In this document: positions 6,399 through 62,330 of the stretch, piece after piece
How positions within the stretch are numbered: the stretch's first letter is position 1
Layout of the letters: each line of letters begins with the position of its first letter
Source: Zingiber officinale
Taxonomy: Eukaryota > Streptophyta > Magnoliopsida > Zingiberales > Zingiberaceae
Length of the DNA stretch: 64,000 nucleotides
Assembly (NCBI RefSeq): GCF_018446385.1
Contig: NC_056002.1
Coordinates: forward strand, 9,062,894 to 9,126,893
Direction: 5' to 3'
Program-made: the position numbers and the translations under genes
Notes under the pieces: generated by a model
Seen by the model: the letters and a program-made list of their open reading frames with translations, nothing else
The model's database searches: none
What the model was told of the DNA's origin: nothing

Positions 6399-6492
6399 CA
6401 TTTAACATAAATGCAGACATTTGACCAATGTTATTCTTATTTCAAAATAAATGTTCATACAAAAAGTTAGGCTTTTAGTATACATCCCAACA
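6399..6492 (-). repeat. 3' LTR fragment of the minus-strand copia element
   Basis: These 94 bases closely repeat 20354-20448 at the other end of the element (the stretch ending TATACATCCCAACA). The rest of this LTR is displaced by the A-family insertion. Confidence 0.85.
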
Positions 6493-8220: not shown

Positions 8221-8705
8221 CGTCGATAAAGGCCGCAGCGTTCATTTCTTCGCATCTCTTCTCCGATTCACTCCATTCCCCTCTCCACAGCCTCAAGCTC
8301 AGATCGCCAGTTCTTGAAGGATCTTGGAAGTTTTCCAAGTCAAGAGGTGGATCAAAGCCAAGAAGAGAAGCTAGGGTTAGGGTTTATACTCATTGTAAGC
8401 TTGTAAGCTTGTATTTCTTGTATCCTTTCCCTCTCTTCTTGTATTGAGTCTTGTAGGGCTTCTCCGCCCTTGGTAGTGACCATAAAGGAGAGTTTTATTT
8501 AGTGGAGGGTGTGTGTGTTGGTGTGGATCCTTGGATTAGTCACCTCTTGTGAGGTGGATACCAAGTAAACCAACCGTGTTAGCGTTGTGTGATTGTTCTT
8601 TGTATTTCCGCTGCACATCTTTGAAGGAACAAGCAACGCCGAGCACCGAGCGAACGCGATGAGCTATTCACCCCCCCCCCCCTCTAGCTACTTTTGGTCC
8701 TAACA

Positions 8706-8721
8706 AGTGGTATCAGAGCAA
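8706..8721 (+). other. Primer-binding site
   Basis: TGGTATCAGAGC follows the LTR end by two bases. It is complementary to the 3' end of initiator methionine tRNA, the standard primer of plant copia elements. Confidence 0.85.
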
Positions 8722-8838
8722 GGTTGCTCTTCACCGGAATCACCGCCGGAAGGGGCAAACATATCAAGAAAAGCTAGAGGGGTGAAGAAGTTGGAGCAAA
8801 TTCTTCAAGTTCAAGACTTTATCAAGCTCAACTTCAAG

Positions 8839-10569: not shown

Positions 10570-12982
10570 AGCATCCAAGGAGCACCAATAGGTGTTGGGT
10601 TCCTAGGAGCATCTTCTCTACCCCATAGATGGGTTAGAGAGTGTCAACTCCGATTAGAAGGGTAGTTAACCTAACTTTGAGGAAATTGACACTCAAGGAG
10701 CATTTTCAAGGTTTTAGTTAACCTTTGAAAATGAAATGGACCTATTGTTTACTCCTTGAAAGAGTAAAATGTGCCTAATGGTGGAAGAATTGATTTTAAT
10801 CTAAAATGGCACAAATTGGGAAAACCTTGAGAAATACCAAGTTGGGATTTTGGTATTCTCTTGGAAATTTAAGGTAATCCGGGCCTTGATTTATGTAATC
10901 ACTCTTGAGGAAAAATGGAATATGCCAACATTTGAGGACATGTTTACTTTCAATTGGCATACATTAAATCAAGGAAATTAGAAATGCAAATTTAGGCTTT
11001 GGCATTCTCTTGTAGCACTTTAGGGCAATCTAGGTTTAAGTTGTAAGTTTAGCTAAGACTTTAAGGATACTTAGATAGTTAATCTAGGTATATTTTATTT
11101 ATGCTAAATCTTGCCATGATTGTTTGCCCATCATATGCCATGACATCATGTCTAGTTTTGCATTCATGTTTTATTATGAAAAATCTAAAAATACCATGTC
11201 ATGACATTCATACATCATGTAGTAATAGGATATTTTCTTTTGAAAATTATTTTCTTTTGATGTATGCCATAACATAATCATGCATTAAGTTTAATTCCTT
11301 GTAATTAAGGACGAATGGCATTTAACGACACTTATTGACAAGTGACATCCTAGGTGGATGTCTAATATTTCTAAAATGCCTAGATAGATATGCATGATCC
11401 CTAGATTAGGGCAAAAACCAAAATCTACATCTCACAAAGACTATAAGGTGACTTGTATGTGATTAGTACATATTAGATACAAGTGAGATGTTAGGATGAT
11501 GAACAAAGCTCAAGATGTTGATTTAGTGCATTCTTTTGAGTTTTTAGGTTCATCAAAATACATAGTTATGTGTTTTCCCATCATTGGGAAAGCTAATGTA
11601 CAAGTCATGTGCATTATGCCCAAGGAACATGATGGGATATTGGTTTTGAAAATGTTTTTAAAATGTTTTTGGAAAACCTTGGTGAAGGCTATCTTTTGAT
11701 AGTAATCACCATTGAATAGTTAGACACAAACTTGAAGAAAAACACTAAAGTTTTTGCAAGTTTTCAAGTTTGTGTCAATCTTTGAAAATATGATGTATTT
11801 TCATAGAAAGCTATTTTTCCATGATTAAGTATGCCCTAAATAATGTCTACACGAAATTTCATGATTTTTGGATTTTTGTAGAATTTTCTAGGGGTTTCTG
11901 AAGTTGACTGAAATGGAATTTCAGCAACTATCAGAGCTCCGATCGATCCATGGATCGATTGGAGTGCCTGAATCGATCCATGGATCGATTCAGAAGGCAA
12001 GTCTCCCGCGAGCAGAAGCTCGCTGGATCGATCAGCCGATCGATCCAGGTAGTCTGAATCGATCAGTGGATCGATTCAGAAAGGTTCAATCGATTGGAAC
12101 CCAACTCCAATCGATCCAAGTTGCTGATTTTGGCTGGGAAGGCTTGATTTCAGCATCTTTGAACCTCTTTGAGTCTAGGTAACCATTCCAAACCCCTAAA
12201 ATACATTTGTATACATACAAAGGGTGTTTTCATGTGAAAACAAGGATGGATTGGTTAAGGAAGGCTTCATTGAAGTTTAGGTTGAGGTTTGTTTCAAATT
12301 TTGAGTATTTGAACCTCAAAACTTCTAAATTTGGGTTTCCTAAAGGTTTAGGAATTCCAAGTCATTGTTGGTGCAATGACAGAAGTTACCACCATGTCTT
12401 TAGGGGGAGGGACTCTTTAAAGACATGAAAAATTACTTTTCATGAACCTTGGAAGGTGGTTAACCTTCTTTAAAGAAAATGCTCATGTATGAGCTTTTGA
12501 ACTTGAAATGGGGAGTGGATATCCTCATTATTTCAAGTGGGAACTCAAGTGGTTAGATAATGCTCAAGGTTGGGTATTTGTCTACATTGAGGGAGAAGTT
12601 AAGGATAAATGAAGGGTATGGGACCTTTATTATCGTGTTGATCACAACGAGTGATGTTGTGAACAATGATGAGTAACTCTTGGGGAGAGTCGTCAACAAA
12701 TGGATTTGTTGATGTGTACCCAAAATTGGGGCATGGGTTGATGTGTGCCCAAAGATGGGTTGATGTGTGCCAATAGGGGGAGAATGAAAGGACCTATGAA
12801 TGGGTGTAAGTTAGGCTTTCATTACCTAGAGGGAGTGTGCCCTCGTAGGGGGAGAATGAAGAGATTAATTTATATGTTTCATTACCTAGTGGCATGAAGA
12901 TTGAGGCTATAGGATTAGCCTAACTTACATGTGGTATTGTAAGTGTTATTGTGGTATTGTCAAACATCAAAAAGGGGGAGAT
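10570..12982 (+). other. Non-coding 3' interior of the gag-only element
   Basis: These 2.4 kb contain no convincing coding frame. They hold a variant of the LTR's GATCGATC palindrome array at 11937-12120, and end in the purine tract AAAAAGGGGGAGA (about 12969-12981) immediately before the 3' LTR. Confidence 0.75.
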
Positions 12983-14473
12983 TGTTGGTGCAACATCCCT
13001 CAGGTCAAGGTTGACCTGGGTGACCAAGCTGAGTCTTGGTTTGAGTTTAGATGTTTGACAATAAGAAATTGATTGAAGAAGAGTCAAGTAGGTCAAGGTT
13101 GACCGGATACTTGACAGGGAAGTCCTGGTGAGTGAAGCCAGGCAGAAGGAAAACCCTAGTGAGTGAAGCTAGGTGAAAGTCCTAGTGAGTGAAGCTAGGT
13201 GAAAGTCCTGGTGAGTGAAACCAGGTGAAAATCCTAGTGAGTGAAGCTAGGTGAAAGTCCTGGTGAGTGAAACCAGGTGAAAACCCTAGTGAGTGAAGCT
13301 AGGTGAAAGTCCTGGTGAGTGAAGCCAGGCAGAAGGAAAATCCTAGTGAGTGAAGCTAGGTGAAAGTCCTGGTGAGTGAAGCCAGGTGAAAGCCCTAGTG
13401 AGTGAAGCTAGGCAGATGGAAAACCCTAGTGAGTGAAGCTAGGTGAAAGTCCTGGTGAGTGAAGCCAGGCAAGGGAAAATCCAGATGGATCAAGGATGAT
13501 CGGACATCTGGTGTTGGGAAGTCCAAGTAGGTCAAGGGAGTGACCAGATACTTGGCATGAATAGAAAAGTCTAAGTGGGTCAAAGGGATTGACCAGACAC
13601 TTGGTGGGAAGTCCTAGCAGGTCAAAGGAGTGACCAGATGCTAGGCATGATGTACCAACAGGTCAAGGTTGACCGGATGTTGGTTTGAGAGGCTTGGAAC
13701 TTGGTTTTGGGCAAAACCAAGTGTTGGATCGATCTGGATCGATCCAGGAGCTGGATCGATCCTTCTCTCGAAACAGAGCCTCGGATCGATCCGTGGATCG
13801 ATCAGATGTTCCAATCGATCGCTGGATCGATTGGGACGCTCGCGCGATAAGCACCGGATCGATCCGTGGATCGATCCAGCGCTTTTCGAGCGAAGGCGCC
13901 TGATCGATCCGTGGATCGATCCAAAGCCTCCCGATCGATTGGGAACATTCGAATCGATCGGATCCGACCGTTGGCGTCGATAAAGGCCGCAGCGTTCATT
14001 TCTTCGGCATCTCTTCTCCGATTCACTCCAGATTACTCGTCAGCTCCTCCACAGCACTCACAAAGCTCAGATCGCCAGTTCTTGAAGGATCTTGGAAGTT
14101 TTCCAAGTCAAGAGGCGGATCAAAGCCAAGAAGAGAAGATAGGGTTAGGGTTTATACTCATTGTAAGCTTGTAAGCTTGTATTTCTTGTATCCTTTCCCT
14201 CTCTTCTTGTATTGAGTCTTGTAGGGCTTCTCCGCCCTTGGTAGTGACCATAAAGGAGAGTTTTATTTAGTGGAGGGTGTGTGTGTTGGTGTGGATCCTT
14301 GGATTAGTCACCTCTTGTGAGGTGGATACCAAGTAAACCAACCGTGTTAGCGTTGTGTGATTGTTCTTTGTATTTCCGCTGCACATCTTTGAAGGAACAA
14401 GCAACGCCGAGCACCGAGCGAACGCGACGAGCTATTCACCCCCCCCCCCCTCTAGCTACTTTTGGTCCTAACA
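12983..14473 (+). repeat. 3' LTR of the gag-only element
   Basis: This 1491-bp LTR runs from TGTTGG to CCTAACA and repeats 7221-8705 closely, including the tandem units (13124-13475), the GATCGATC palindromes (13723-13960) and the C-run near 14439. The second target-duplication copy GAGAC follows at 14474. Confidence 0.92.
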
Positions 14474-24524: not shown

Positions 24525-25968
24525 ATGGTACTGCAATCTCAACTCGTTATATATATATAGGTTGAATAATTACGATACAATTTTTCTCTACGTTTGATCA
24601 GGTTGCCGAGCTGAACGTAAAGCAGAGGGAAGCAACTCTAGTGGTGCCGGCGGCGGAGGAGACACAGAAGGGCCTCTACTTCCTCAGCAACCTGGATCAG
24701 AACATTGCGGTTGTAGTGCAGACAATTTATAGCTTCAAGTCAGGGGAGAAGGGGAACGGCACGGCGGCGAGGGTGATCAAGGAGGCTCTGGCCAAAGTGC
24801 TCGTGCACTACTACCCGCTCGCCGGTCGCCTTACCCTCAGCGCCGAGGGGAAGTTGATTGTAGACTGCACCGGCGAGGGCGCGGTGTTCGTCGAGGCTGA
24901 AGCCGACTGCGAGATGGAAGACATCGGAGACATTGGGATTAAGCCTGATCCGGCCACGCTGGGGAAGCTCGTTTATAACGTTCCTGGTGCCAAGAACATA
25001 TTGGAGATACCTCCATTGGTTGTTCAGGTCTGATCTTGCTCTTGAATGATTTGATTTGATTTGATTTGGTCGATGATCGCAATTGATTAATTCGGTATAT
25101 TCAGTTAACGACTTTTACTTGCGGGGGATTCGTCTTGGGGTTGTCGATGAACCACTGCATGTTCGACGGCCTCGGCGCGATGGAGTTCGTGAACTCGTGG
25201 GGCGAGACGGCGCGCGGGCTGCCGCTGTCGGTGCCGCCGTTCGTCGACCGCACGGTTCTGCGGGCGCGCGATCCGCCGGTGATCGGCTTCCCCCACCACG
25301 AGTTCGCGGAGATCGAGGACGTCTCGGAGTCGGCGGCGCTGTACCAGAAGGAGGAGATGCTGTACCGCTCGTTCTGCTTCGACCCCGACAAGCTGGAGGC
25401 GGTGAAGCGGCGGGCGACGGAAGGCGCCGGCTCGCCGACCAAGTGCACCACCTTCGAGGCCCTGGCGGGCCTCGTGTGGCGCGCGCGCGCGCAGGCGCTG
25501 GGGCTGCGCGCAGGGCAGCGGACCAAGCTGCTCTTCGCGGTCGACGGGCGTCTGCGCTTCGAGCCGCCGCTGCCAAAGGGCTACTTCGGCAACGGCATCA
25601 TGCTCACCAACGCGCTGTGCACGGCAGGGGAGCTCCTGGAACGGCCGCTGGGATTCGCGGTGGGACTGGTGCAGGAGGCGGTGAGGATGGTGACGGAGGA
25701 GTACATGCGGTCCGCCATAGACTACTTCGAGGCGACCAGGGCGCGGCCTTCGCTGACGGCGACGCTGCTGATCACCACCTGGTCCCGTCTGTCGTTCCAC
25801 ACCACGGACTTCGGGTGGGGCAAGCCGATTCAGTCGGGGCCGGTGGCGCTGCCTGAAAAGGAAGTGAGCTTGTTCCTGGCGCATGGCAAGGAGAGGAAGA
25901 GCATCAACGTCCTGCTGGGGCTCCCGAGCTCAGCAATGGAGAGATTCCAAGAGCTGGTGGAGATATAG
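24525..25968 (+). CDS. ASFT: BAHD acyltransferase, omega-hydroxypalmitate O-feruloyl transferase type
   Basis: I read three exons: 24525-24527 (the ATG alone), 24602-25027 and 25105-25968, with GT-AG introns of 74 and 77 bp, both in phase 0. They give 430 aa, normal for BAHD enzymes. The catalytic HCMFD (HxxxD) is at residues 160-164 and DFGWG at 378-382. Conserved blocks such as [17 protein letters not shown] and GYFGNGI are present. The family transfers acyl groups from CoA thioesters in the cytosol. Close resemblance along the full length is to ASFT/HHT1/FHT, which adds ferulate from feruloyl-CoA to omega-hydroxy acids and fatty alcohols for suberin. The third exon is strongly GC-rich, as in monocots. 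Reading straight on from the ATG meets a stop within intron 1, so splicing is needed. Substrate choice is inferred from similarity; another hydroxycinnamoyl transferase is possible. Confidence 0.85.
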
Positions 25969-29457: not shown

Positions 29458-30183
29458 TTAATCGAGATTCGCCGCCGCCGCCGTGGTTATGAGAGGAAGA
29501 GAATCCCAAATCATGTCCATGTCAAGAGAAGGCATTCTGCTCAACATCACCCCACTCGCGTCATCCCTCTTCGCCTCCTTCCCAGCGATGGCGACCGACG
29601 CCGGGTTCTCATCGCCCCCCGTCTTCTTCTGTTTCTTCGCCGGCGACGGCGACGACGCGGCTGAGTCGCCGGTGGCGAGCTTCGCGTCCAGCAGCGCTGT
29701 AATGGCCGCATGGTGCAGCGGCCTCCGGTGTTGTTGTTGTTGTTGCTGCTGCTGCTGCTGCGCGTGTGGGAAGTTGAGGCGCGCGGCGTCGCCGCGCAGC
29801 TTGTAGGCGGCGATGTCGTACGCGATGGCGGCGTCCTCGGCGCTGTCGAAGGTGCCGAGCCACACCCTGGCCCGCCGCCGCGGCAGACGGATCTCCGCCA
29901 CCCACTTCCCCCACTGCCGCTGCCGGACGCCTCTGAACAGCTTCTCCTGCCGGGCGGCGTGGCCCTCCGCCCACTGACTCCGGCTATCCAACGGGAGGCC
30001 AAGATCGAGGCCATGTTGGGAAGGTCGAGAGCGCTCTGCCTTGCCGTCGTCGAAAGTGATCATGGTAGCGGCAGCGTCGGAGGAACTACTGCAATTATTA
30101 CTTCCGTTCTGGAAGCAATAACCACCATTCATCGCCATTGACGCCGATCGATTCCTTCGTTGATTGCTGCTGTTGCTTCTCAT
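29458..30183 (-). CDS. AP2/ERF transcription factor, RAP2.4/DREB A-6 type
   Basis: An intronless 241-aa frame. The single AP2 domain covers residues 81-140: [20 protein letters not shown], the [12 protein letters not shown] block and [13 protein letters not shown]. The WVAEIR and ARLNFP wording matches the RAP2.4/ERF061 branch (DREB subgroup A-6, ERF group I). These nuclear proteins bind GCC-box or DRE elements and act in stress, light and wax or hormone responses. The N-terminus is Ser/Asn-rich. Ten glutamines follow the domain (142-151). A basic AKKQKK stretch at about 187 may help nuclear import, and the acidic-aromatic C-terminus ([10 protein letters not shown]) may activate transcription. 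The first ATG (30181-30183) is used here; a second Met-Ala-Met at residues 16-18 is an alternative start. The exact subgroup is inferred. Confidence 0.88.
29731..29760 (-). repeat. Polyglutamine microsatellite in the ERF gene
   Basis: On the coding (minus) strand five CAG codons are followed by five CAA codons, encoding ten glutamines directly after the AP2 domain. Pure triplet runs of this sort often vary in length between individuals. Confidence 0.9.
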
Positions 30184-31437
30184 TATTTATGTTGTTGAAG
30201 CAGAGGAACGAAATGGATTCCATTTTTTTAAGGCACATTCCTAACCTTTTTCTGTAAATATATTTCCCTTTTTTAAGATAGAATAATTTTCTTAAACACA
30301 TTGTTATTAGGTTGGCTTCATCTGGATTAGGATAATAATTCTGCGTTGAGCTAACACTTTTTAAATAATTAACGATGTGATAGGATGAGAGGTTATTTGA
30401 ATGGGGGCCATGTTCTACACGATATTGTTTTTAGTTTAAGCAGCACTTTCCAGCAAGGCATCGACAAGGATGAGACCATTGGTTTGGTGAGACAAATTAA
30501 TATACACAAACCTTTTTGACGTCGCATTGTTATAATCTTTCTGACCAAAAACAATTTGCTATAATTTTTATAGCTTAAGTATTCCATAAACACAGGAATT
30601 GCATCAAAGAACTGAAGGTGCAGAGATGTTAGAGATACCAAGGACTTCATGACATGAACTCCACCTCCATAAGCGAATAACATCATGAACAAGAGCTTAA
30701 ATCTCAATCATTAACATAACAAAAAAGAAACGGTATCGTAATTGTTATGAATCATGAGAGGCATCACCTTCAGGTGCATAAATAAGAGAGGTCAAAGACA
30801 TGGAGAGGAAAGTGACACGACAATGGACGAGAAATCAGAAAGAGTTTTTATATATATAAAAACTTTCTTAATTTAAGCGATAGGATTTGTTAGCATTTCA
30901 CTCGAAAGTAATTAGAGTGGCTTTTCTTAATTTTAGGGATAAGATTAGTTAATACTTTGTCCAACGTGATTGATTCCGAATTGTGTAAGCTCAGTCTGTC
31001 GGGATGATTAGTTGACATTATTGCTTCTTTAGGTTCATTTTCTTCGTGCTGAGCTGAGCCATGATCAGAAGAGCTTGGCAATAACAACGTACAGTAAGTT
31101 GCTAATGGAGTTTCTGAAATTAGTTCCATGGTTAGGAGGAAAAACATGCATGCTATTTGATATCTTGATTGATTTTTTTTTAGTTGACATTAATACCTAC
31201 CTCTTTGAATCAAGTAATTCTAAATGACCGATTTAATTTCACGAAAATTTTCCATCGATTAATGATTATTAGAGTAAATCGGTAAACACTTATGAAGATT
31301 CTTTTAAATAGCTATTGTCCTTAGGACTGTTCTTAGGCATACTTTTCATTAATGGAAAAATCTTCAGTAGTACATTATATCCGTCATTCAAATTTTAGAT
31401 CTTTTAATTATTCAATGGAGAATCTAATCATTCCATC
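30184..31437. other. Intergenic region upstream of the ERF gene
   Basis: A minus-strand TATA-like AATATATTT (about 30255-30264) could serve the ERF gene. A 104-codon minus-strand frame at 30393-30707 has no family I recognise and no GC-rich coding character, so I do not call it. The remainder is AT-rich without visible structure. Confidence 0.5.
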
Positions 31438-31699
31438 ATTATCCCGAGACATATGTCTTAAGTGATATTGATCTTATTTATAGAGGTAAATCAACTATAA
31501 AAGGAAGAAAAAACGAACATAAACAAAGATTATAAATGATTATTTATTCAAGGGTTTAACCATTACATTATTATCCTGTGACATACATCTATAGTGTTAT
31601 GGATCTTATTTATAAGGTAAATTGACGATAAAGGTAAGAAAAAAATGAACATAAACAAATATTACAAATATACGGTTGATTATCTAACAATTACATTAT
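31438..31699. repeat. Direct repeat, two units, split from a third by the retrotransposon array
   Basis: Two units (from 31438 and 31570) of about 125-132 bp share ATTATCC..GACATA, GATCTTATTTATA and GTAAGAAAAAAATGAACAT-like blocks. A third unit begins at 41325, exactly where the array ends. Position 31695-31699 is the left copy (ATTAT) of the array's target duplication. Confidence 0.8.
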
Positions 31700-32584
31700 T
31701 ATAGGTGCAGTGGAAGCCGACAAGAGGGGGGTGAATTATCTGCAAATAAAAATTATACCCTCCTCAAACTTTCAACTCAAAAATAGCAACACTAAAATAA
31801 AATAATTAAGGAAAACGAAATAGAGAAGACCCGGAATTTACTTGGTTACAACCAAGACGGTTGTTAATCCAAGGAGATGAAAAGCGCAGTAAGAAAACTC
31901 CTTCTCTGAAGGCGGAGAAGTCTTTTACACACTTGGAAAGCTCAACAGTTGCTAGGAAATCTAATACTGAGTTGAATAAATAATTCCTAGCTCCAGGGGC
32001 CTTTATATAGCTCCTGGAAAGTCTATCCCGAGGGTCCAAGGAGCCTCCAACAAGGTTCAAGGCGCCTCCAGCACGGTCAACGGATAAAATTTTATCCGCA
32101 ACGCAAACGGTAAAACTGACCGGTTGAAGATGCCTTCATCAAGCTTTAAGGCGCCTTCATGTTGAGGGTGTCTTCATGCTTCATGAAGGCGCCTTCAAGC
32201 TGGTTTTCCAGCTTGAGCTTCTTTTCCAACTCCATTGCGTTGACTTCCGATGCTCTGATAGTTTGGGTGATTCAGCCAACCGAAATAGGGCTCACCCGAA
32301 TCCAATTTCCGGCCTTCTTCTCGAGCAGCCTTCCTCACCGGCTTAACGTCCCCGAACGCCGCGCACGTTCTTCTCGCCCACTGGTGTACTCTTCCGCAGC
32401 TTCCTCGTCCTTTGGACGCACCGAGCCCGTCGGCTCCCTTCCCGTGTCGTCCTTCTCGCTAGCTGCGTCTTCCGCTCGACTTCCTGCGCTCCTAAGTTCC
32501 TACACACTCAGACACAGGGATCAAATACAAAGCAGGATCTAACCAACTTGGTTGATCACATCAAAACATCCACGAGGTCCAACA
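31700..32584 (-). repeat. Array LTR 1
   Basis: This 885-bp LTR is the 3' end of the array in element orientation. A minus-strand TATA box (CTATATAAAGGCC, about 32000-32012) and palindromic GGCGCC-type motifs (about 32040-32195) are shared with the other array LTRs. Confidence 0.9.
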
Positions 32585-34626
32585 ATCTCCCCCTTTTTGA
32601 TGTGCATTAACCCAAGTTCAAGTTAGGATATAAAAATAAATAGTAATTTAAAGAAATTACTAACTAACAGTTTAAGCATAAAAATTGCAATAAAAATTTG
32701 CAATACTAAAAGAATTTTGAAATTATTAAATTTTCCTAACTCCCCCTAAACTTGTACCTATTTCTCCCCCTTTGATCACAGCAAAAACGGGGTAAACTGA
32801 AGTTTTTGAAGATTTCAAGTAAACTGAATTTTTCAGAAAAATTTTCTAAGTTAAAAATTAGTTTTTAGAATTTTTAAAAAGAATTTCTAAGTAAAAATTC
32901 TAAGTAACCAGAATTTTTAGAGTTTTCAAGAAAAAGTTTGAAAAACTTTTAAAGCATTATTTAATTTTAACTTCTAATGCTTTTACCAGAAAGTGGATTA
33001 AACATTTTATTCCGATATTTCGGCTTCCAGGTCGTGGCGAGGCACAAGGCCTTCTTGGTTATTGGAGCAACAACCACTTCCTTAGACAAAGCTTCATAAA
33101 GAAATTCATTGTTTAATTTTACTTGCTGTAAGCTCTAACTTCAATAAGTCTAATTTATCAAAGACTTTGGAATCCAGTATAGATTCCTTCCTACTGGGTT
33201 AATTAAAAATCTATGGGGTACATAAGTTTTAAGAATTTTCCTAAGTTGACCTTGATGCTTTCTAATATACCAGTTTAATTTACCAAAAAAATTTTAATTT
33301 AGATTTTTTAAAAACATTTGAACATGCAACAGATTTCAATTTTTCAATTTCATTTTTCAATTTTGCATTCTCTAATTTCAAATGTTCATTTTCTTTTTCT
33401 AATTGATCTAACTCTTTAGAAAGAGACTTGATAAATAGAAATAACTGAGTAGGGTTAGATTACGCACCTTACTTACCTGACTAGGTGATGTTCCCCCTTC
33501 ACTGCAGCTTTCTTCTTCTGATGTTCCTCCCCCTTCATCTATGCTCATCTCGGAGCTTGAGTCATCTTCGGGAAGATGGTTAGCCATCATCGCTAACACG
33601 GAGAAAGCTTCGACGTCTGATTCGGAAGAAGACGAATCAAACCAAGTGGCCTTCAAGTTCTTGTGCTTGGATGATTCTGATTTCTTGTACTTTGTCTTTT
33701 CCTTCTCCTTCCCCATTTTCTTCAAGTCCGGGCAGTCATCTTTGATGTGCCCTTCTTCGTTGCAGTTGTAGCAACGAATCATCCTTTTTCTTTGCTGATG
33801 TCTCTTTGTCTGCGATCTAAATTTATTAGATTTAAAAAATTATTAAAGCGTCTTACCAGTAGTGCCGCTTCGGATTCGTCGACCGAGGCTTCGGAGTTAG
33901 AACCGTTTATTTTTTCCTTTAAGGCAATGTTCTGACTAGTCTTCTCTACTCCATTGGGCTCTGCAACTCGAGATTCGTGAAGTTCAAAAGTAGAAAACAA
34001 TTGTTCTAGAGTATTTACCTCGAAGTCCTTAGAGATGTAGTACGCATCTACTAAGGAGGCCCACTCTGAAATTCTAGGGAAGGCGTTGAGCGCGTACCGG
34101 ATCGAGTCTCGGTTCTTTACTTCTTCTCCAAGGTTGCTTAATTGCGTGATCAACTCTTTAATCCTCGCTAGGAGTTGCGCTACCTTCTCGCCTTGGTTCA
34201 TCCGGAGGTTCGTCAACTGGATCCGGAGGATGTCGCGGCTCGCTAGCTTCGCTTCGGAGGTACCTTCATGAAGCTCCAGGAATTTTTCCCAGAGATCTTT
34301 TGCAGAGTCGTAGCTTCCTATCCAATTTACCTCCTGAGATAGCGGAACGCTGAGCAGGTAGAACTCAGTCTTTCCGTTAGCGACAAAATTGGCTTGCTCC
34401 TTCTTGCTCCACGTGTTTTCTTCTTTATCTTTCGGCGCTGCATATCCATATTTCATTATTAAAAATATATCAAATTCAGTTTTAAAAAATACCTCCATTT
34501 TTCGCTTCCATGTAGCGAAATCTCCGTCGAACTTTGGAGGATGAATATTTGCTCCGGCCAACGTCTTGATCATTGTGCTTCAGTCGGCGATTAGTCCTTC
34601 TGAGGCGGTCTGACTCTGATACCAAT
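32585..34626 (-). mobile_element. Array interior 1 with gag
   Basis: From right to left (element orientation): the primer site, a Gag-like region (about 33400-34573) beginning MIKTLAGANIHPPKFDG with a CCHC knuckle (CYNCNEEGHIKDDC), a Ser/Glu-rich tail, a predicted coiled coil (about 33300-33420), 0.7 kb of AT-rich sequence, and the purine tract (32585-32600). No pol motif is seen. Confidence 0.85.
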
Positions 34627-35486
34627 TGTAGGTGCAGCGGAGGCCGACAAGAGGGGGTGAATTACCTGCAAATAAAAATTATACCCTCCTCAAACTTTCA
34701 ACTAAAAAATAGCAACACTAAAATAAAATAATTAAGGAAAACGAAATAGAGAAGACCCGGAATTAACTTGGTTACAACCAAGACGGTTGTTAATCCAAGG
34801 CGATGAAAAGCGCAGTAAGAAAACTCCTTCTCTGAAGGCGGAGAAGTCTTTTACACACTTAGAAAGCTCAACAGTTGCTAGGAAATCTAATACTGAGTTG
34901 AATGAATAATTCCTAGCTCCAGGGGTCTTTATATAGCTCCTGGGAAGTCTATCCCGAGGGTCCAAGGCGCCTCCAACAAGGTTCAAGGCGCCTCCAGCTT
35001 GGTCAGCGGATAAAATTTTATCCGCAGCGCAAATGGTCAAAACTGACCTATTGAAGACGCCTTCATCAAGCTTTAAGGAGCCTTCATGTTGAGGGTGCCT
35101 TCATGCTTCATGAAGGCACCTTCAAGCTGGTTTTCCAGCTTGAGCTTCTTTTCCAGCACCATTGCGTTGGCTTCCAATGCTCTGATAGTTTGGGTGATTC
35201 AGCCAACCGAAATAGGGCTCACCCGAACCCAATTTCCGGCCTTCTTCTCGAGCAGCCTTCCTCACTGGCTTAACGTCTCCGAACGCCGCGCACATTCTTC
35301 TCGCCCACTGGTGTACTCTTCTGCAGCTTCCTCGTCCTTTGGACCGTGTCGTCCTTCTCGCTAGCTACCTCTTCCGCTCGACTTCCTGCGCTCCTAAGTT
35401 CCTGAACACTCAGACACAGAGATCAAATACAAAGCAGGATCTAACCAACCTGGTTGATCACATCAAAACATCCACGGGGTCCAACA
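34627..35486 (-). repeat. Array LTR 2
   Basis: An 860-bp LTR of the same family, about 25 bp shorter than its three sisters. It is shared between the first and second interiors. Confidence 0.9.
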
Positions 35487-37526
35487 ATCTCCCCCTTTTT
35501 GATGTGCATCAACCCAAGTTCAAGTTAGGATATAAAAACAAATAGTAATTTAAAGAAATTACTAACTAACAGTTTAAGCATAAAATTTACAATAAAAATT
35601 TGCAATACTAAAAAAATTTTGAAATTATTAAATATTCCTAACTCCCCCTAAACTTGTACCTATTTCTCCCCCTTTGATCACAGCAAAAACGGGGTAAACT
35701 GAAGTTTTTGAAGATTTCAAGTAAACTGAATTTTTCAGAAAAATTTTCTAAGTTAAAAATTAGTTTTTAGAATTTTTAAAAAGAATTTCTAAGTAAAAAT
35801 TCTAAGTAACCAGAATTTTTAGAGTTTTCAAGAAAAAGTTTGAAAAACTTTTAAAGCATTATTTAATTTTAACTTCTAATGCTCTTACCAAAAAGTGGAT
35901 TAAACATTTTATTCCGATATTTCGGCTTCCAGGTTGTGGCGAGGCACAAGGCCTTCTTGGTTTTTGGAGCAACAACCACTTCCTTAGACAAAGTTTCATA
36001 AAGAAATTCATTGTTTAATTTACTTGCTGTAAGCTCTAACTTCAATAATTCTAATTTATCAAAGACTTTGGAATCCAGTATAGATTCCTTCCTACTGGGT
36101 TAATTAAAAATCTAGGGGGTACATAAGTTTTAGGAATTTTCCTAAGTTGACCTTGATGATTTCTAATATACCAGTTTAATTTACCAAAAATTTTTAATTT
36201 AGATTTTTTAAAAACATTTGAACATGCAACATATTTCAATTTTTCAATTTCATTTTTCAATTTTGCATTCTCTAATTTCAAATGTTCATTTTCTTTTTCT
36301 AATTGATCTAACTCTTTAGAAAGAGACTTGATAAATAGAAATAACTGAGTAGGGGTTAGATTACGCACCTTACTTACCTGACTAGGTGATGCTCCCCCTT
36401 CACTGCAGTTTTCTTCTTCTGATGTTCCTCCCCTTCATCTATGCTCATCTCGGAGCTTGAGTCATCTTCGGGAAGATGGTTAGCCATCATCGCTAACACG
36501 GAGAAAGCTTCGACGTCTGATTCGGAAGAAGACGAACCAGACCAAGTGGCCTTCAAGTTCTTGTGCTTGGATGATTCTGGTTTCTTGTACTTTGTCTTTT
36601 CCTTCTCCTTCCCCTTTTTCTTCAAGTCCGGGCAGTCATCTTTGATGTGCCCTTCTTCGTTGTAGTTATAGCAACGAATCGTCCTTTTTATTTGTTGATG
36701 CCTCTTTGTCTGCGATCTAAATTTATTAGATTTAAAAAATTATTAAAGCGTCTTACCAGTAGTGCCGCTTCGGATTCGTCGACCGAGGCTTTGGAGTCAG
36801 AACCGTTTATTTTTGTCTTTAAGGCAATGTTCTGACTAGTCTTCTCTACTCCATTGGGCTCTGCAACTCGAGATTCGTGAAGTTCAAAAGTAGAAAACAA
36901 TTGTTCTAGAGTATTTACCTCGAAGTCCTTAGAGATGTAGTACGCATCTACTAAGGAGACCCACTCTGAAATTCTAGGGAAGGCGTTGAGCGCGTACCGG
37001 ATCGAGTCCCGGTTCTTTACTTCTTCTCCAAGGTTGCTTAATTGCGTGATCAACTCTTTAATCCTCGCTTGGAGTTACACTACCTTCTCGCCTTGGTTCA
37101 TCCGGAGGTTCGTCAACTGGGTTCGGAGGATGTCGCGGCTCGCTAGCTTCGCTTCTGAGGTACCTTCGTGAAGCTCCAGGAATTTTTCCCAGAGATCTTT
37201 TGCAGAGTCGTAGCTTCCGATCCGATTTACCTCCTGAGATAGCAGAACGCTGAGCAGGTAGAACTCAGTCTTTCCATTACCAACAAAATCGGCTTGCTCC
37301 TTCTTGCTCCACGTGTTTTCTTCTTTATCTTTCAGCGCTACATATCCATATTTCATTATTAAAAGTATATCAAATTCAGTTTTAAAATATACCTCCATTT
37401 TTCGCTTCCATGTAGCGAAATCTCCGTCGAACTTTAGAGGATGAATATTTGCTCCGGCCATCGTCTTGATCATTGTGCTTCAGTCGGCGGTTAGTCCTTC
37501 TGAGGCGGTCTGACTCTGATACCAAT
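35487..37526 (-). mobile_element. Array interior 2 with gag
   Basis: The same layout as interior 1: Gag-like region at about 36374-37473 and coiled-coil and linker region at about 36051-36368 (includes KELDQLEKENEHLKLENAK). No pol. A few breaks are visible. Confidence 0.85.
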
Positions 37527-38411
37527 TGTAGGTGCAGCGGAGGCCGACAAGAGGGGGTGAATTACCTGCAAATAAAAATTATACCCTCCTCAAACTTTCA
37601 ACTAGAAAATAGCAACACTAAAATAAAATAATTAAGGAAAACGAAATAGAGAAAACCCGGAATTAACTTGGTTACAACCAAGACGGTTGTTAATCCAAGG
37701 CGATGAAAAACGCAGTAAGAAAACTCCTTCTCTGAAAGCGGAGAAGTCTTTTACACGCTTAGAAAGCGCAACAGTTGCTAGGAAATCTAATACTGAGTTG
37801 AATGAATAATTTCTAGCTCCAGGGGTCTTTATATAGCTCCTGGGAAGTCTATCCCGTGGGTCCAAGGCGCCTCCAACAAGGTTCAAGGCGCCTCCAGCTT
37901 GGTCAGCGGATAAAATTTTAGCCGCAGCGCAAATGGTCAAAATTGACCTATTGAAGGCGCCTTCATCAAGCTTTAAGGCGCCTTCATGTTGAGGGCGCCT
38001 TCATGCTTCATGAAGGCGCCTTCAAGCTGGTTTTCCAGCTTGAGCTTCTTTTCTAGCACCGTTGCGTTGGCTTTCGATGCTCTGATAGTTTGGGTGATTC
38101 AGCCAACCGAAATAGGGCTCACCCGAACCCAATTTCCGGCCTTCTTCTCGAGCAGCCTTCCTCCCCGGCTTAACGTCTCCGAACGCCGCGCACGTTCTTC
38201 TCGCCCACTGGTGTACTCTTCCACAGCTTCCTCATCCTTTGGACGCACCGAGCCCGTCGGTTCCCTTCCCGTGTCGTCCTTCTCGCTAGCTACGTCTTCC
38301 GCTCGACTTCCTGCGCTCCTAAGTTCCTGCACACTCAGACACAGAGATCAAATACAAAGCAGGATGTAACCAACTTGGTTGATCACATCAAAACATCCAC
38401 GGTGTCCAATA
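37527..38411 (-). repeat. Array LTR 3
   Basis: An 885-bp LTR of the same family, with the GAAGGCGCCTTC palindrome series at about 37950-38025. Confidence 0.9.
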
Positions 38412-40438
38412 ATCTCCTACTTTTTGATGTGTATCAACCCAAGTTCAAGTTAGGATATAAAAACAAATAGTAATTTAAAGAAATTACTAACTAACAGTTT
38501 AAGCATAAAAATTGCAATAAAAATTTGCAATACTAAAAGAATTTTGAAATTATTAAATATTCCTAACTCCCTCTAAACTTGTACCTATTTCTCCCCCTTT
38601 GATCATAGCAAAAACGGGGTAAACTGAAGTTTTTGAAGATTTCAAGTAAACTGAATTTTTCAGAAAAATTTTCTAAGTTAAAAATTAGTTTTTAGAATTT
38701 TTAAAAAGAATTTCTAAGTAAAAATTCTAAGTAACCAGAATTTTTAGAGTTTTCAAGAAAAAGTTTGAAAAACTTTTAAAGCATTATTTAATTTTAACTT
38801 CTAATGCTTTTACCAGAAAGTGGATTAAACATTTTATTCCGATATTTCGGCTTCCAGGTCATGGCGAGGCACAAGGCCTTCTTGGTTATTGGAGCAACAA
38901 CCACTTCCTTAGACAAAGCTTCATAAAGAAATTCATTGTTTAATTTACTTGCTGTAAGCTCTAACTTCAATAATTCTAATTTATCAAAGACTTTCGAATC
39001 CAGTATAGATTCCTTCCTACTGGGTTAATTAAAAATCTAGGGGGTACATAAGTTTTAAGAATTTTCCTAAGTTGACCTTGATGCTTTCTAATATACCAGT
39101 TTAATTTACCAAAAATTTTTAATTTAGATTTTTGAAAAACATTTGAACATGCAACAGATTTCAATTTTTCAATTTTGCATTCTCTAATTTCAAATGTTCA
39201 TTTTCTTTTTCTAATTGATCTAACTCTTTAGAAAGAGACTTGATAAATAGAAATAACTGAGTAGGGGTTAGATTACGCACCTTACTTACCTAACTAGGTG
39301 ATGCTCCCCCTTCACTGCAGTTTTCTTCTTCTGATGTTCCTCCCCCTTCATCTATGCTCATCTCGGAGCTTGAGTCATCTTCGGGAAGATGGTTAGCCAT
39401 CATTGCTAACACGGAGAAAGCTTCGACGTCTGATTCGGATGAAGACGAATCAGACCAAGTGGCCTTCAAGTTCTTGTGCTTGGATGATTTTGGTTTCTTG
39501 TACTTTGTCTTTTCCTTCTCCTTCCCCTTTTTCTTCAAGTTCGGGCAGTCATCTTTGATGTGCCCTTCTTCGTTGCAGTTGTAGCAACGAATCATCCTTT
39601 TTCTTTGCTGATGCCTCTTTGTCTGCGATCTAAATTTATTAGATTTAAAAAATTATTAAAGCGTCTTACCAGTAGTGTCGCTTCGGATTCGTCGACCGAG
39701 GCTTCGGAGTCAGAACCGTTTATTTTTGCCTTTAAGGCAATGTTCTGACTAGTCTTCTCTACTCCATTGGGCTCTGTAACTCGAGATTCGTGAAGTTCAA
39801 AAGTACAAAACAATTGTTCTAGAGTATTTACCTCGAAGTCCTTAGAGATGTAGTACGCATCTACTAAGGAGGCCCACTCTGAAATTCTAGGGAAGGCGTT
39901 GAGCGCGTACCGGATCGAGTCCCGGTTCTTTACTTCTTCTCCAATGTTGCTTAATTGCTGATCAACTCTTTAATCCTCGCTTGGAGTTGCGCTACCTTCT
40001 CTCCTTGGTTCATCCGGAGGTTCGTCAACTAGGTCCGGAGGATGTCGCGGCTCTCTAGCTTCGCTTCGGAGGTACCTTCGTGAAGCTCCAGGAATTTTTC
40101 CCAGAGATCTTTTGCAGAGTCGTAGCTTCCGATCCGATTTACCTCCTGAGATAGTAGAACGCTGAGCAGGTGGAATTCAGTCTTTCCGTTAGTGACAAAA
40201 TTGGCTTGCTCCTTCTTGCTCCACGTGTTTTCTTCTTTATCTTTCGGCGCTGTATATCCATATTTCATTATTAAAAGTATATCAAATTTAGTTTTAAAAA
40301 ATACCTCCATTTTTCACTTCCATGTAGCGAAATCTCCGTCGATCTTTGGAGGATGAATATTTGCTCAGACCATCGTCTTGATCATTGTGCTTCAGTCGAC
40401 GTTTAGTCCTTCTGAGGCGGTCTGACTCTGATACCAAT
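38412..40438 (-). mobile_element. Array interior 3 with gag
   Basis: The same layout: Gag-like region at about 39290-40380 with the CCHC knuckle near 39560-39595. No pol. A few breaks are visible, slightly more than in interior 1. Confidence 0.85.
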
Positions 40439-41324
40439 TGTAGGTGCAGCGGAGGCCGATAAGAGGAGGTGAATTGCCTGCAAATAAAAATTATACCCTC
40501 CTCAAACTTTCAACTCAAAAATAGAAACACTAAAATAAAATAATTTAGGAAAACGAAATAGAGAAGACCCGGAATTAACTTGGTTACAACCAAGACGGTT
40601 GTTAATCCAAGGCGATCAAAAGCGCTGTAAGAAAACTCCTTCTCTGAAGGCGGAGAAGTCTTTTACACACTTAGAAAGCTCAACAGTTGCTAGGAAATCT
40701 AATACTGAGTTGAATGAATAATTCCTAGCTCCAGGGGTCTTTATATAGCTCCTGGGAAGTCTATCCCGAGGGTTCAAGGCGCCTCCAACAAGGTTCAAGG
40801 CGCCTCCAGCTCGGTCAGCGGATAAAATTTTATCCGCAGCGCAAACGGTCAAAACTGACCTATTAAAGGCGCCTTCATCAAGCTTTAAGGCGCCTTCATG
40901 TTGAGGGCGCCTTCATGCTTCATGAAGGCGCCTTCAAGCTGGTTTTCTAGCTTGAGCTTCTTTTCCAGCACCATTGCGTTGGCTTCTGATGCTCCGATAG
41001 TTTGGATTATTCGGCCAACCGAAATAAGGATCACCCGAACCCAATTTCCGGCCTTCTCCTCGAGCAGCCTTCCTCCCATGCTTAACGTCCCTCGAACGCC
41101 GCACACGTTCTTCTCGCCCACCAGTGTACTCTTCCGTAGCTCTCTCGTCATTCGGACGCACCGAGCCCGTTGGCTCCCTTCCCGTGCCGCCCTTCTCGCT
41201 AGCTGCGTCTTCCGCTCGACTTCCTGCGCTCCTAAGTTCCTGCACACTCAGACACAGAGATCAAATACAAAGCAGGACCTAACCAACTTGGCTGATCATA
41301 TCAAAACATCCACGGAGTCCAACA
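40439..41324 (-). repeat. Array LTR 4
   Basis: An 886-bp LTR, the 5' end of the array in element orientation, ending CCAACA at 41324 next to the right target-duplication copy ATTAT. Its middle (about 41000-41170) differs more from the other three LTRs than they differ from each other. Confidence 0.9.
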
Positions 41325-42344
41325 ATTATCTTGAGGCATATATCTGGCGTGATATTGATCTTATTTATAGAGGTAAATCAGGTAAATCGAGCATAAAAGG
41401 AAGAAAAAAACTAACAAAGATTACAAATACACTGGTACAAACCAAAAGCAGTAAAATGAGGAACCAGAAGGGAATTAAGAAAAAAACATATACAGAGTCA
41501 TCACAAGGAATTAAAAATATAATCAGAACGCTCTTTTCCCGAAACAACTACAACTTCTTACTACGCTAGGGATTAACATAAAAAATTTCAGGAAGCTTAT
41601 GGTGCTAGAAGTAGACAAGAAGATAAGTCAGCTGCCACAAAATAAATAAATAAATAATTAATTAAAAAAATAGAATACTGAAACAACACTTGAATAATTT
41701 TCTTCAAAGGCACGATTCAAGTTAAAGGTGGTACTAATCCCATGGATTGGTGAATAAATGAGCCAATAAACTAAAATGAGGCTATGATTGATAAAGTTTT
41801 ACAATATTGGTCCAAATAAAAATAATGATTTGATAGACTAATTAAATTTTATGTGATGAAAGGTGCAAATGTATTCTATACATGGAGGAAAATAATTAAT
41901 ATATATTGCAAAAGAGGATGAAGGGTAAAATAGGAGAAAATTTTAACTTTGTTTATAAATATACCATAATCAAGTGTTAATATATCAATGCAATATATTC
42001 ACTATAAATTATATATAAAAAGTTAAGATTTAACCATTATTGCATTCAATAATTATATATTATATATTGATTGAAATGCTAAAAGAACTCGTTTTTAAAA
42101 TTATAGGATAAATATTTTCGTAAAACTTAAGCATAAGTATATAAGTTAACATGCACTAACCAATCAATTCAGTTTTAAACATGTTTATCTATAATTATAT
42201 TATTATGAAGATGGAATTTCTGTAAAATGATTAAATTTCATTAATATATAATTATTAAATTTTATAGAACTTTCATATTTTTTTTCTTCAATGTGGTCGA
42301 ACCCGACCTGGAATCATAGCCATGTGCTAGGCGTGGCACGGTTG
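41325..42344. other. Intergenic DNA to the right of the array
   Basis: 41325 to about 41440 is the third unit of the direct repeat begun at 31438. The remainder is AT-rich, with no gene seen, up to the promoter elements of the snoRNA locus. Confidence 0.6.
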
Positions 42345-59992: not shown

Positions 59993-62330
59993 TTCTCCCC
60001 CACTAATAAAAATTTTGTCCCCAAATTTCGTTATCTACCATCAGCTAGTACTAACAACAGATATATAGTATAAATGCTGAACGGTAAATAAACCACATAC
60101 CTCAAGTGAAAAGATGGGGATATCGAGCTCGGATCGTATCCTCGAGCTCCCAAGTAGCCTCCTTATCCGAATGATGCTGTCATCCGACTTTAACCAGCCG
60201 GATAGTCTTGTTCCGCAACTGACGCTCCTTCCGGTCCAAAATCCCTACCGGAATCTCCTCATATGTGATGTCAGGCTGAACTAGAACTGGAATATCTGCC
60301 AGCACATGTGTCGGATCAGGCACATATCTCCTCAGCACGGATACATGAAACACATCGTGCACACCTGATAGGGACAGTGGTAGTGCCAATCTGTAAGCTA
60401 CCGCTCCGATTCTCTCTAATATCTCGAAAGGACCAATATACCGCGGAGCTAACTTACCCCTGAGGCCAAATCTCTTCACCCCTTTCGTGGGTGAAACTCG
60501 TAGAAATACATGGTCGCCAACAGAGAACTCTAGTGGTCTACGTCTCCGATCTGCATAACTCTTCTGGCGGTCCTGTGCCTCTAACATCCTCCGTCTGATA
60601 GTACGGACTAACTCTGCGTCCTGCTGAACTCTATGAGGTCCCAACAACTGAGCCTCTCCAACCTCATCCCAAAGGACGGGTGTCCGACAAGGTCTACCAT
60701 ACAACGCCTCAAACGGTGCCATCTGGATAGCCGAATGGAAGCTGTTGTTGTAAGCAAACTCTACTAACGGCAGATGGTCCTCCCAACTGCCTCCAAAATC
60801 CATAACACATGATCTCAGCAAGTCCTCAAGAGTCTGAATAGTCCGCTCTGACTGTCCATCTGTCTGTGGATGGAAAGCTGTACTGAAACGGAGCTGTGTG
60901 CCCAAGGCCTGCTGCAGACTCTGCCAGAAACGAGACGTGAACCGTGGATCTCTATCCGAAATGATACTCAATGGAACACCATGTAGTCTGATAATCTCTC
61001 GGCAATACAAATCTGCCAATCGATCCAGGGAATCAGTCCTCCGAATCGCTAAGAAGTGCGCTGATTTGGTTAATCGATCAACGATTACCCAAATCGCGTC
61101 ATGGCCTCGTCGTGTCCTAGGCAACCCTACCACAAAGTCCATGGTAATATGATCCCACTTCCACTCAGGAATAGGAATCCGCTGAAGTAATCCTGCAGGT
61201 CTCTGGTGCTCAGCCTTCACCTGCTGACAGACAAGACATCTAGCTACGAAATCCGCGATGTCTTTCTTCATGCCGTTTCACCAGTAGGAACGTCTCAAGT
61301 CTCGATAAATACGGGTCCCACCTGGATGAATCGCAAATCGAGAGCAATGAGCCTCCTGAAGTAGCTCCTGTAGGACCGGAGGAGACTGAGGTACGCATAA
61401 TCTGCCTCGGTAGTGTATAACACCCTCCTCGTCTCGTGTGAACTCGGTCTGTTGCCCGGAAGCTATCTGGCTGCAAATAAATTGCAAATACTGATCAGCA
61501 GCCTAGGGCTCTCGTATCCTCGTCCTGATCAACGACTGAGCACCCATGGTAACCAGAGTACCCTAATCTGTCTGTCCTTACCCCTCAAGGCCCAAATCGG
61601 AGGAGCCTTAAATTAAGTCTGTGACCACAACTCGGTGGCAAGCTAAAGTCCCTCCGGACTTCCTGTTAAGCGCATCGACAACCACATTAGCTCTCCCCGG
61701 TGATAGCTAATGGTACAATCATAATCCTTCAAGAACTCCATCCATCTTCTCCGTCGGAGATTAAGTTCCTTCCAAGTAAACAGATATTTGAGACTCTTAT
61801 GGTCAGTGAGAATCTCAAATGTAACGCCATATAAATAATACCGCCAAATCTTCATGGCAAAAATAATGACGACTTGCTCCAGATCATGTACAGGGTAGTT
61901 CTTCTCATGTTCCTTCAATCGACGAGAAGGATAGGAGACTACCATATCGTGCTGCATCAGAACAGCGCTCAAACCCTAAATAGATGCGTCGGTGCAGAGG
62001 ACATATCCGTCCTCTCCAGAAGATAAAACCAAAAATCGGAGCCGACACTAGTCTCCGCTTCAACTCCTAGAAGTTGGTCTTGTCATCCTTAGTCCAAGTG
62101 AACTTCACGCCTTTCCAGGTCAGACGTGTCAGTGACATGGCTATCCAAGAGAAACCCTCAACGTATCTCCGGAAATATCGAGCCAAACAAAGGAAGTTGC
62201 GAGCCTCTTCTATAGACTCCGTCTACTTCCAAACGGTAACAACCTCAATCACCTGTGAAACCACGGTATACTCCTACTGGTGACCGTGTGTCTCAAACAT
62301 CTCACAGAAGACAACCAAAATACGTACTAC
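57011..62330 (-). mobile_element. Ty3/gypsy chromovirus (Tekay/Del-like), 3' half
   Basis: Minus-strand element. Its 3' LTR is at 57011-59992, preceded in element orientation by the purine tract (59993-60004), a chromodomain (about 60105-60270), integrase (about 60270-61490), RNase H (about 61640-61975) and the end of reverse transcriptase (to about 62330). The integrase catalytic core and the GPF-type module are clear. The rest of pol, gag and the 5' LTR are not in the window. A handful of breaks are seen; broken, moderately old. The chromodomain is the part that in this lineage can guide insertion to chromatin. Confidence 0.85.

What the first reader, a model, noticed from the sequence alone, without database searches (positions are those of the whole stretch)
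31700..41324. Single-insertion tandem array of a gag-only retrotransposon (4 LTRs, 3 interiors)
The whole 9.6-kb array is flanked by one 5-bp target duplication (ATTAT), the units are head to tail at 2.90-2.93 kb, and every interior keeps its own primer site and purine tract. Plant LTR elements are usually single or nested. Ordered three-unit arrays are uncommon and imply repeated LTR-LTR unequal exchange, or insertion of an already multimeric cDNA.
Basis: partly seen in the sequence, partly recalled or inferred. Interest (0 to 1): 0.72.

Follow-up and report, generated by a model that had tools for sequence, protein, structure and literature searches.

The report
Tandem gag-only retrotransposon, grown after insertion
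One copy of a small plant mobile element, already crippled, was most likely copied head to tail by mispaired recombination between its own end repeats; such arrays are known in plants, but this one keeps a fairly readable record of how it formed.

Summary
The array is real: four LTRs and three interiors, head to tail on the minus strand (31700-41324), inside one 5-bp duplication (ATTAT). The homologous site on the other haplotype is empty. The element is a copia-type, gag-only LTR retrotransposon with broken gag. The inner LTRs look like hybrids: left part like the right outer LTR, right part like the left outer LTR, switching near LTR position 545-557. Unequal exchange between the LTRs of an inserted element gives that phase; joining cDNAs end to end gives the opposite. 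The outer LTRs are the most diverged pair (K 0.076; inner pair 0.036; interiors 0.028-0.032). The interiors form one clade and share a gag frame break that none of 20 other family interiors covering the site has. So the array most likely grew in place, well after insertion. Weak points: the left-part tree test is inconclusive, and the right part of LTR4 is as far from LTR1 as from other family copies. Two further arrays of the family are undecided. Tandem LTR arrays are already described as common in plants, so this is a new member of a known kind, useful for a mechanism that a 2025 paper left open.

The parts
31695..31699 (.). left copy of the 5-bp target duplication ATTAT
31700..32584 (-). 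LTR1 (3' LTR in element sense), 885 bp, outer; begins TA instead of TG on the + strand
32585..34626 (-). interior 1, 2042 bp; purine tract and primer site agree with unit 2
33779..34579 (-). gag reading frame of unit 1 with Retrotran_gag_2 (PF14223, E 7e-14); the zinc knuckle (PF00098, E 2e-7) lies in another frame at 33408-33839
34627..35486 (-). LTR2, inner hybrid, 860 bp with a 25-bp deletion; switch between 35170 and 35183
35487..37526 (-). interior 2, 2040 bp; purine tract and primer site agree with unit 1; the gag_2 frame is further interrupted near 37074
37527..38411 (-). LTR3, inner hybrid, 885 bp; switch between 38070 and 38083
38412..40438 (-). interior 3, 2027 bp; purine tract with two substitutions, primer site unchanged, private 13-bp deletion
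40439..41324 (-). LTR4 (5' LTR in element sense), 886 bp, outer
41325..41329 (.). right copy of the 5-bp target duplication ATTAT
35052..35140 (.). palindrome-rich stretch inside LTR2 (strong single-strand hairpins), about 30-60 bp from the switch interval; LTR1 and LTR3 fold likewise, LTR4 was not folded
   Evidence: z -7.25; LTR3 z -9.76, LTR1 z -7.90

Best explanation
One gag-only copia-type element inserted once, as a normal two-LTR copy, into one haplotype (shown: one target duplication, empty other haplotype; that it had two LTRs then is inferred). It stayed a single copy for roughly half its age and gathered mutations in LTRs and interior, among them a gag frame break (supported by changes shared by all three interiors; some may predate insertion). 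Then an unequal exchange between its right LTR on one chromatid and its left LTR on the other, at about LTR position 545-557, made a two-unit array whose middle LTR was a right-LTR/left-LTR hybrid (inferred from the phase). A second mispaired exchange soon after, anywhere in the 2.9-kb unit, copied the hybrid LTR with an interior and gave four LTRs and three interiors (inferred; order of events unresolved). Retrotransposition was not needed for the growth. A strong palindrome about 30-60 bp from the switch may have helped start the break (speculative).
For: LTR phase: sites where LTR1 alone differs fall 21 left / 4 right of position 548; sites where LTR4 alone differs fall 10 left / 22 right (Fisher p 1.3e-4); the best single switch (between 544 and 549) explains 43 of 57 sites, permutation p 0.001; the reverse phase reaches at best 33 of 57, with its break before the last site. 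Fitted apart, the break of LTR1-only sites is best at 544 and that of LTR4-only sites at 548. Polarised with 30 other family LTRs: derived sites shared by LTR2+3+4 are 4 left/1 right, by LTR1+2+3 1 left/9 right, Fisher p 0.017. Trees: left part groups LTR2+3+4 (97/90), right part LTR1+2+3 (100/99). Ages: LTR1-LTR4 K 0.076 (95% 0.057-0.097), LTR2-LTR3 0.036 (0.024-0.050), interiors 0.028-0.032; 0.001 of 2000 bootstraps reverse LTR1-4 against LTR2-3. Interiors: clade 100/100 among 27 rows, stem 0.018, tips 0.012-0.016; at 22 sites all three share a base held by at most 10% of the other rows. Same frame break in 3 of 3 interiors and in 0 of 23 other rows covering the site, which are 20 distinct interiors at 18 loci. 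Empty homologous site.
Against: AU test: on the left part LTR1+2+3 as a clade is not rejected (p 0.34, lnL 9.4 worse); on the right LTR2+3+4 is rejected at p 0.035 only. Taken alone, the break in LTR1-only sites is not significant (p about 0.27); that in LTR4-only sites is (p about 0.017). On the right part LTR4 does not join LTR1-3 in the tree and is as far from them (30-33 differences of 312-337) as from other family LTRs (26-29 of 336-338), so a patch of LTR4 copied from another family member, or insertion during the family's radiation, cannot be told apart there. The contrast LTR2-only (2 left/6 right) against LTR3-only (13/4), meant as a control, is itself uneven, p 0.028; three sites pair LTR1 with LTR2; LTR1-LTR2 divergence is nearly equal left (0.049) and right (0.043). 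The other two arrays do not repeat the full signature: C20 only over LTR positions 1-265, C3 is star-like. Outer-LTR K (0.076) exceeds the flank K between haplotypes (0.040-0.042), which needs a faster LTR rate; transversions alone are nearer (16/884 against 67/4590).
Confidence: 0.75

Rival explanations
1. Multimeric cDNA: several cDNAs or template-switched products were joined before integration and inserted as a trimer.
For: One target duplication for the whole array. Cassandra authors (PMC7215508, passages) and the rice tandem authors (PMC11899658, Discussion) keep this route open.
Against: It predicts equal ages, but outer LTRs are about twice as diverged as inner LTRs and interiors. End-to-end joining predicts hybrid LTRs of the opposite phase (reasoning). 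The shared gag break and the 22 shared sites require all units to come from one template with that lesion.
Confidence: 0.08
2. In-place duplication without an LTR crossover at this point (for example exchange within the interior), the mosaic look of the LTRs coming from gene conversion, such as a patch of another family member copied into the right part of LTR4.
For: LTR4's right part is no nearer to LTR1-3 than to other family LTRs and falls apart from them in the tree; conversion would also turn sites once shared by all four LTRs into LTR1+2+3 sites.
Against: No donor among 30 other LTRs: the best rows share 10 of the 22 LTR4-only right-hand bases, 9 of which are held by most rows, and 11 of 22 are held by at most 10% of the rows. 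One rare base at 798 is still shared by all four. The left-part grouping LTR2+3+4 and the same best break from LTR1-only sites need a second explanation.
Confidence: 0.12
3. Excision of a one-LTR circle by LTR-LTR recombination, rolling-circle copying and re-entry by homologous recombination, adding both hybrid units in one step (a variant of exchange after insertion).
For: Gives the same hybrid phase; explains why LTR2 and LTR3 share one switch point and why the interiors are close to a trichotomy (shared pairs 4, 2, 1). Chimeric LTRs, downstream part first, were used to place breakpoints in yeast Ty circles (PMC4751563, methods passage).
Against: Needs more steps; LTR2 and LTR3 share 5 derived sites that LTR1 and LTR4 lack, which suggests a two-unit stage, though 3 conflicting sites show the noise level.
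Confidence: 0.12
4. An array formed elsewhere was transcribed as one long read-through RNA and retrotransposed here as a unit.
For: Two other arrays of the family exist in the genome; a weak-terminator route is proposed for tandems (PMC11899658, Discussion).
Against: Reverse transcription would make the outer LTR pair identical at insertion and so the youngest pair; it is the most diverged. The C3 and C20 interiors do not group with the window's.
Confidence: 0.03
5. Independent insertions into each other, or recombination between two separate neighbouring insertions.
For: None beyond the tandem look.
Against: No inner target duplications, one interior clade with a shared lesion, and flanks that align up to the insertion point on both sides of the empty site.
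Confidence: 0.01
6. Assembly artefact (false duplication or haplotypes joined).
For: No reads were available here.
Against: Interiors differ pairwise at 55-64 sites, and the other haplotype has no element to be joined.
Confidence: 0.03

Closest known systems
Tandem LTR-retrotransposon insertions in rice, Arabidopsis, almond and cotton (TLI1, TLI2, IDENTAM set; PMC11899658: abstract, Discussion section and passages seen)
   Same: Alternating LTRs and interiors inside one target duplication, absent from other haplotypes
   Different: 82% of the 28 tandems analysed in one rice genome are gypsy, and the authors could not decide the mechanism; here a copia-type gag-only element whose hybrid LTR phase points to exchange after insertion
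Wukong TRIM arrays in maize (PMC4528315: passages seen)
   Same: Non-autonomous elements with 3-7 LTRs in tandem; unequal crossing over proposed
   Different: Wukong is 532 bp with a 72-bp internal domain; its authors favour recombination between two adjacent elements
Cassandra tandem arrays (PMC7215508: passages seen)
   Same: Non-autonomous LTR arrays; both recombination and template switching proposed
   Different: Cassandra has no gag and its authors report no differences between units; here units are distinguishable
TR-GAG elements (named in PMC10025401: passages seen; the original paper, Chaparro et al. 2015, not seen)
   Same: LTR element with gag and no pol found
   Different: No autonomous partner was sought here; gag of this copy is broken

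Membership tests
LTR retrotransposon, copia type | direct LTRs with TG...CA ends, 5-bp target duplication, primer site and purine tract | tested here: met
   exceptions: LTR1 begins TA on the + strand, LTR3 has a changed end base next to interior 3, and the purine tract of unit 3 has two substitutions
LTR retrotransposon, copia type | copia-type gag | tested here: met
   PF14223 Retrotran_gag_2 E 7e-14 and zinc knuckle E 2e-7
TR-GAG (non-autonomous, gag only) | gag present, no pol domains | tested here: met
   7 ORF pieces of the array gave gag and zinc knuckle and no pol family; three other family members have LTR starts 2,972, 2,993 and 2,998 apart (C5, C10, C6), so they are of the same short size
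TR-GAG (non-autonomous, gag only) | mobilised in trans by an autonomous partner | not tested
   no search for the partner was made
TRIM | very short element without coding capacity (Wukong: 532 bp) | tested here: not met
   unit 2.9 kb with gag
tandem LTR-RT insertion | LTR-interior-LTR-interior order inside one target duplication | tested here: met
product of unequal LTR-LTR exchange after insertion | outer LTRs the most diverged pair | tested here: met
product of unequal LTR-LTR exchange after insertion | inner LTR a hybrid, left part like the right outer LTR and right part like the left outer LTR | tested here: met
   weaker results: AU test on the left part p 0.34, LTR1-only break alone p about 0.27

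The most novel reading that the evidence does not exclude
The two hybrid units entered in a single step: the element popped out as a one-LTR circle, was copied by rolling circle, and re-entered its intact sister copy by homologous recombination, with a strong LTR palindrome next to the crossover as the break site. Plant retrotransposon arrays could then grow by circle re-entry with no retrotransposition.
Probability: 0.12. Interest if true: 0.5.

Novelty: new member of a known kind. Interest (0 to 1): 0.32.

Why it matters
A 2025 survey reports tandem LTR arrays as common and polymorphic in plants but leaves open whether they insert as multimers or grow in place (PMC11899658, Discussion). The phase of the hybrid inner LTR separates the two, and this array gives a fairly readable answer: growth in place, well after insertion, in an element whose gag was already broken. 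The same test can be run on the published arrays, which would turn an open question into a count.

Tried and rejected
Programmed frameshift in gag: the frame change between the gag domain and the zinc knuckle is the same in the three units, but it is private to this array (0 of 23 other rows covering the site), so it is an inherited lesion, not a family trait.

A pol-bearing long member at C1 (two LTR hits about 7 kb apart): the interior stops at 405 and resumes at 401 around an insert, an overlap of 5 bp like a target duplication, so probably a nested insert; the insert itself was not fetched or searched.

Phase test on the other two arrays: C20's right LTR is truncated at LTR position 531, so only its left part can be tested (1-265 fits, 266-531 does not resolve). 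C3's LTRs are nearly star-like. Counted as undecided.

Array frequency: 3 of 32 distinct loci among the 40 scored hits carry an inner LTR, but the query favours inner LTRs and only 40 of 20,832 first-look candidates were scored, so this is no rate. Searches with the C3 and C20 inner LTRs listed the same 4 inner LTRs and no new one among their 40 scored hits each.

Donor for LTR4's right part: none found among 30 other LTRs, which is a small sample of the family.

Paper searches on hybrid or internal LTRs and tandems: one search found 0 papers, one search found 1 (yeast circles), one search found 3 (listing only). I do not claim that the phase argument is new.

The number of array origins, an LTR spacing and the count of distinct interiors were also corrected.

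Full report
What is there. On the minus strand of 31700-41324 lie four LTRs (885, 860, 885 and 886 bp) alternating with three interiors (2042, 2040 and 2027 bp), LTR starts 2,927, 2,900 and 2,912 apart. The whole is flanked by ATTAT at 31695-31699 and 41325-41329. Each inner LTR runs directly into primer site on one side and purine tract on the other, with no inner target duplication. The primer site reads TGGTATCAGAG... in 3 of 3 interiors (that it pairs with initiator-methionine tRNA is recalled). The purine tract agrees in units 1 and 2 and has two substitutions in unit 3. The interior encodes a copia-type gag domain and a zinc knuckle; no pol family was found in 7 ORF pieces.

Host and the other haplotype. 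The window is C17:9062894-9126893 of a 3.09-Gb assembly in 211 contigs. A haplotype-resolved ginger assembly of 3.1 Gb with 11 chromosome pairs is in print (PMC8342452, search listing only); that this is ginger is inference. Both flanks match C18 near 9.515-9.520 Mb. There the flanks follow each other with no match to LTR or interior between them; the C18 site reads ACATCATTACCTCGAGG where the flanks of the array read ACATTAT and ATTATCTTGAGG, so a few bases differ at the point itself. The array is present on one haplotype and absent from the other. C18 has an unrelated insertion of about 1.0 kb about 100 bp to the left. Flank divergence between haplotypes is K 0.040-0.042.

Which origin. If two cDNAs recombine end to end before integration, the middle LTR is like the left outer LTR on its left and like the right outer LTR on its right. 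If the LTRs of an inserted element exchange unequally, the middle LTR is like the RIGHT outer LTR on its left and like the LEFT outer LTR on its right (reasoning). Of 57 sites where only LTR1 or only LTR4 differs from the other three, LTR1-only sites fall 21 left and 4 right of position 548, LTR4-only sites 10 left and 22 right (Fisher p 1.3e-4). The best single switch, between 544 and 549, fits 43 of 57 (permutation p 0.001); the reverse phase fits at best 33, with its break before the last site. Fitted apart, LTR1-only sites break best at 544 (p about 0.27 alone) and LTR4-only sites at 548 (p about 0.017; range 476-567). With 30 other LTRs of the family giving the older state, derived sites shared by LTR2+3+4 are 4 left and 1 right, and those shared by LTR1+2+3 are 1 left and 9 right; the last left-hand LTR2+3+4 site is 532 and the first right-hand LTR1+2+3 site is 557. 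Trees of the two parts disagree as expected: left LTR2+3+4 97/90, right LTR1+2+3 100/99 (33 rows). The AU test is weaker: it rejects LTR2+3+4 on the right (p 0.035) but does not reject LTR1+2+3 on the left (p 0.34).

The weak spot. On the right part LTR4 is no nearer to LTR1-3 (30-33 differences) than to other family LTRs (26-29), and in the tree it does not join them. Either the element inserted while the family was radiating, so that all copies are about equally far apart, or a patch of LTR4 was copied from another family member. No donor was seen among 30 LTRs: 11 of the 22 LTR4-only bases there are held by at most 10% of rows, 6 by none, and one rare base at 798 is still shared by all four LTRs. 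Conversion alone would not explain the left-part grouping or the same best break from LTR1-only sites, but it cannot be excluded.

Ages. LTR1-LTR4 K 0.076 (95% 0.057-0.097) against LTR2-LTR3 0.036 (0.024-0.050); interiors 0.028, 0.028 and 0.032; 0.001 of 2000 bootstraps put LTR1-LTR4 at or below LTR2-LTR3. With a commonly used plant rate of 1.3e-8 per site per year (recalled) this is about 2.9 and 1.1-1.4 million years; only the ratio should be trusted, and a patch in LTR4 would make the first figure too large. Outer-LTR K exceeds the flank K between haplotypes although the other haplotype is empty, so the LTRs probably mutate faster; transversions alone are 16 of 884 and 67 of 4,590 sites.

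One lineage. Among 27 interior rows (3 of the window, 24 of the family from 18 other loci), the three interiors form one clade (100/100) on a stem of 0.018 with tips of 0.012-0.016; at 22 sites all three share a base held by at most 10% of the other rows. All three carry the same gag frame break, absent from 23 of 23 other rows that cover the site, which are 20 distinct interiors because three were read from both ends. So the template was a single element with that lesion. Within the clade the order is unresolved (shared pairs 4, 2, 1 against 22-29 private).

Other misfits. LTR2-only and LTR3-only sites are also unevenly spread (2/6 and 13/4, p 0.028), three sites pair LTR1 with LTR2, and LTR1-LTR2 divergence is about equal left and right (0.049 and 0.043). 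Later gene conversion between units is a likely reason. LTR2 and LTR3 share one switch, so the second step copied an existing hybrid, or both came in together from a rolling circle.

Other arrays in the family. A query of an inner LTR with interior on both sides matched end to end at 4 places in 3 arrays among 40 scored hits: this one (2), C3 and C20; the same 4 were listed with the C3 and C20 inner LTRs as queries. C3 has three LTRs with a 7.3-kb LTR element nested in the second interior; C20 has three LTRs, the last cut at position 531, and a 2.8-kb insert. C20's interiors are sisters (100/99); C3's three pieces cluster with weaker support (87/76). Arrays therefore arose at least twice and probably three times. 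C20's middle LTR matches the right LTR over positions 1-265 (3 differences, against 11-12 with the left LTR, a badly aligned stretch at 91-114 left out) and is unresolved beyond; C3 is star-like.

A possible trigger. Three of the four LTRs were folded as single-stranded DNA and form strong hairpins (z -7.25, -9.76 and -7.90; 0 of 200 shuffles as good), about 30-60 bp from the switch interval 35170-35183 in LTR2. That such a palindrome started the exchange is speculation.

Against what is known. Tandem LTR insertions with one target duplication are described in rice and called common in plants, and the authors state that both mechanisms remain possible (PMC11899658: abstract, Discussion, passages). 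Wukong (PMC4528315, passages) and Cassandra (PMC7215508, passages) arrays are older cases. Gag-only elements are a named class, TR-GAG (PMC10025401, passages). This is therefore a new member of a known kind, with an unusually readable record of its formation.

Noticed in passing
29458-30186 (-): AP2/ERF-like ORF (PF00847 E 1e-13) whose 5' side faces the array; the array's last LTR ends about 1.5 kb upstream in the same orientation and is missing on the other haplotype, so allele-specific expression could be tested.
   Followed up: no
31425-31669 and 41325-41428: The left flank holds an imperfect repeat of about 132 bp, and the right flank resembles it; the element sits inside this small repeat cluster.
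   Followed up: partly
L048/L040, C18 about 9517137-9518164: An insertion of about 1.0 kb with inverted ends like CAAGGGCGTAGCTA / TAGCTACGCCATTG on the other haplotype, absent from the window: probably a DNA transposon.
   Followed up: no
L036 and L038: Loci whose LTRs are 91% identical to LTR3 but whose interior matches only near the ends (1-539 and 1822-2027) and not in gag: shorter derivatives.
   Followed up: no
L055-L056 (C3), about 6233-13513 of the joined stretch: A 7.3-kb LTR element (ends 95% identical over 1.1 kb) nested in the second interior of the C3 array.
   Followed up: partly
C19:37118011-37118902: A match to the LTR alone with no interior on either side: a likely solo LTR, the reciprocal product of LTR-LTR recombination.
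   Followed up: no
35052-35140, 37952-38040, 32125-32215: GAAGGCGCCTTC-type palindromes form strong hairpins inside the LTRs and give opposite-strand self matches at many family loci.
   Followed up: partly
25087-25968 (+): ORF with a plant transferase domain (PF02458 E 1e-61), a BAHD-type acyltransferase by recall.
   Followed up: no
2136-2945 (+) and 60180-61277 (-): Pieces of other retrotransposons: copia reverse transcriptase (RVT_2) and an integrase of gypsy type (type by recall).
   Followed up: no
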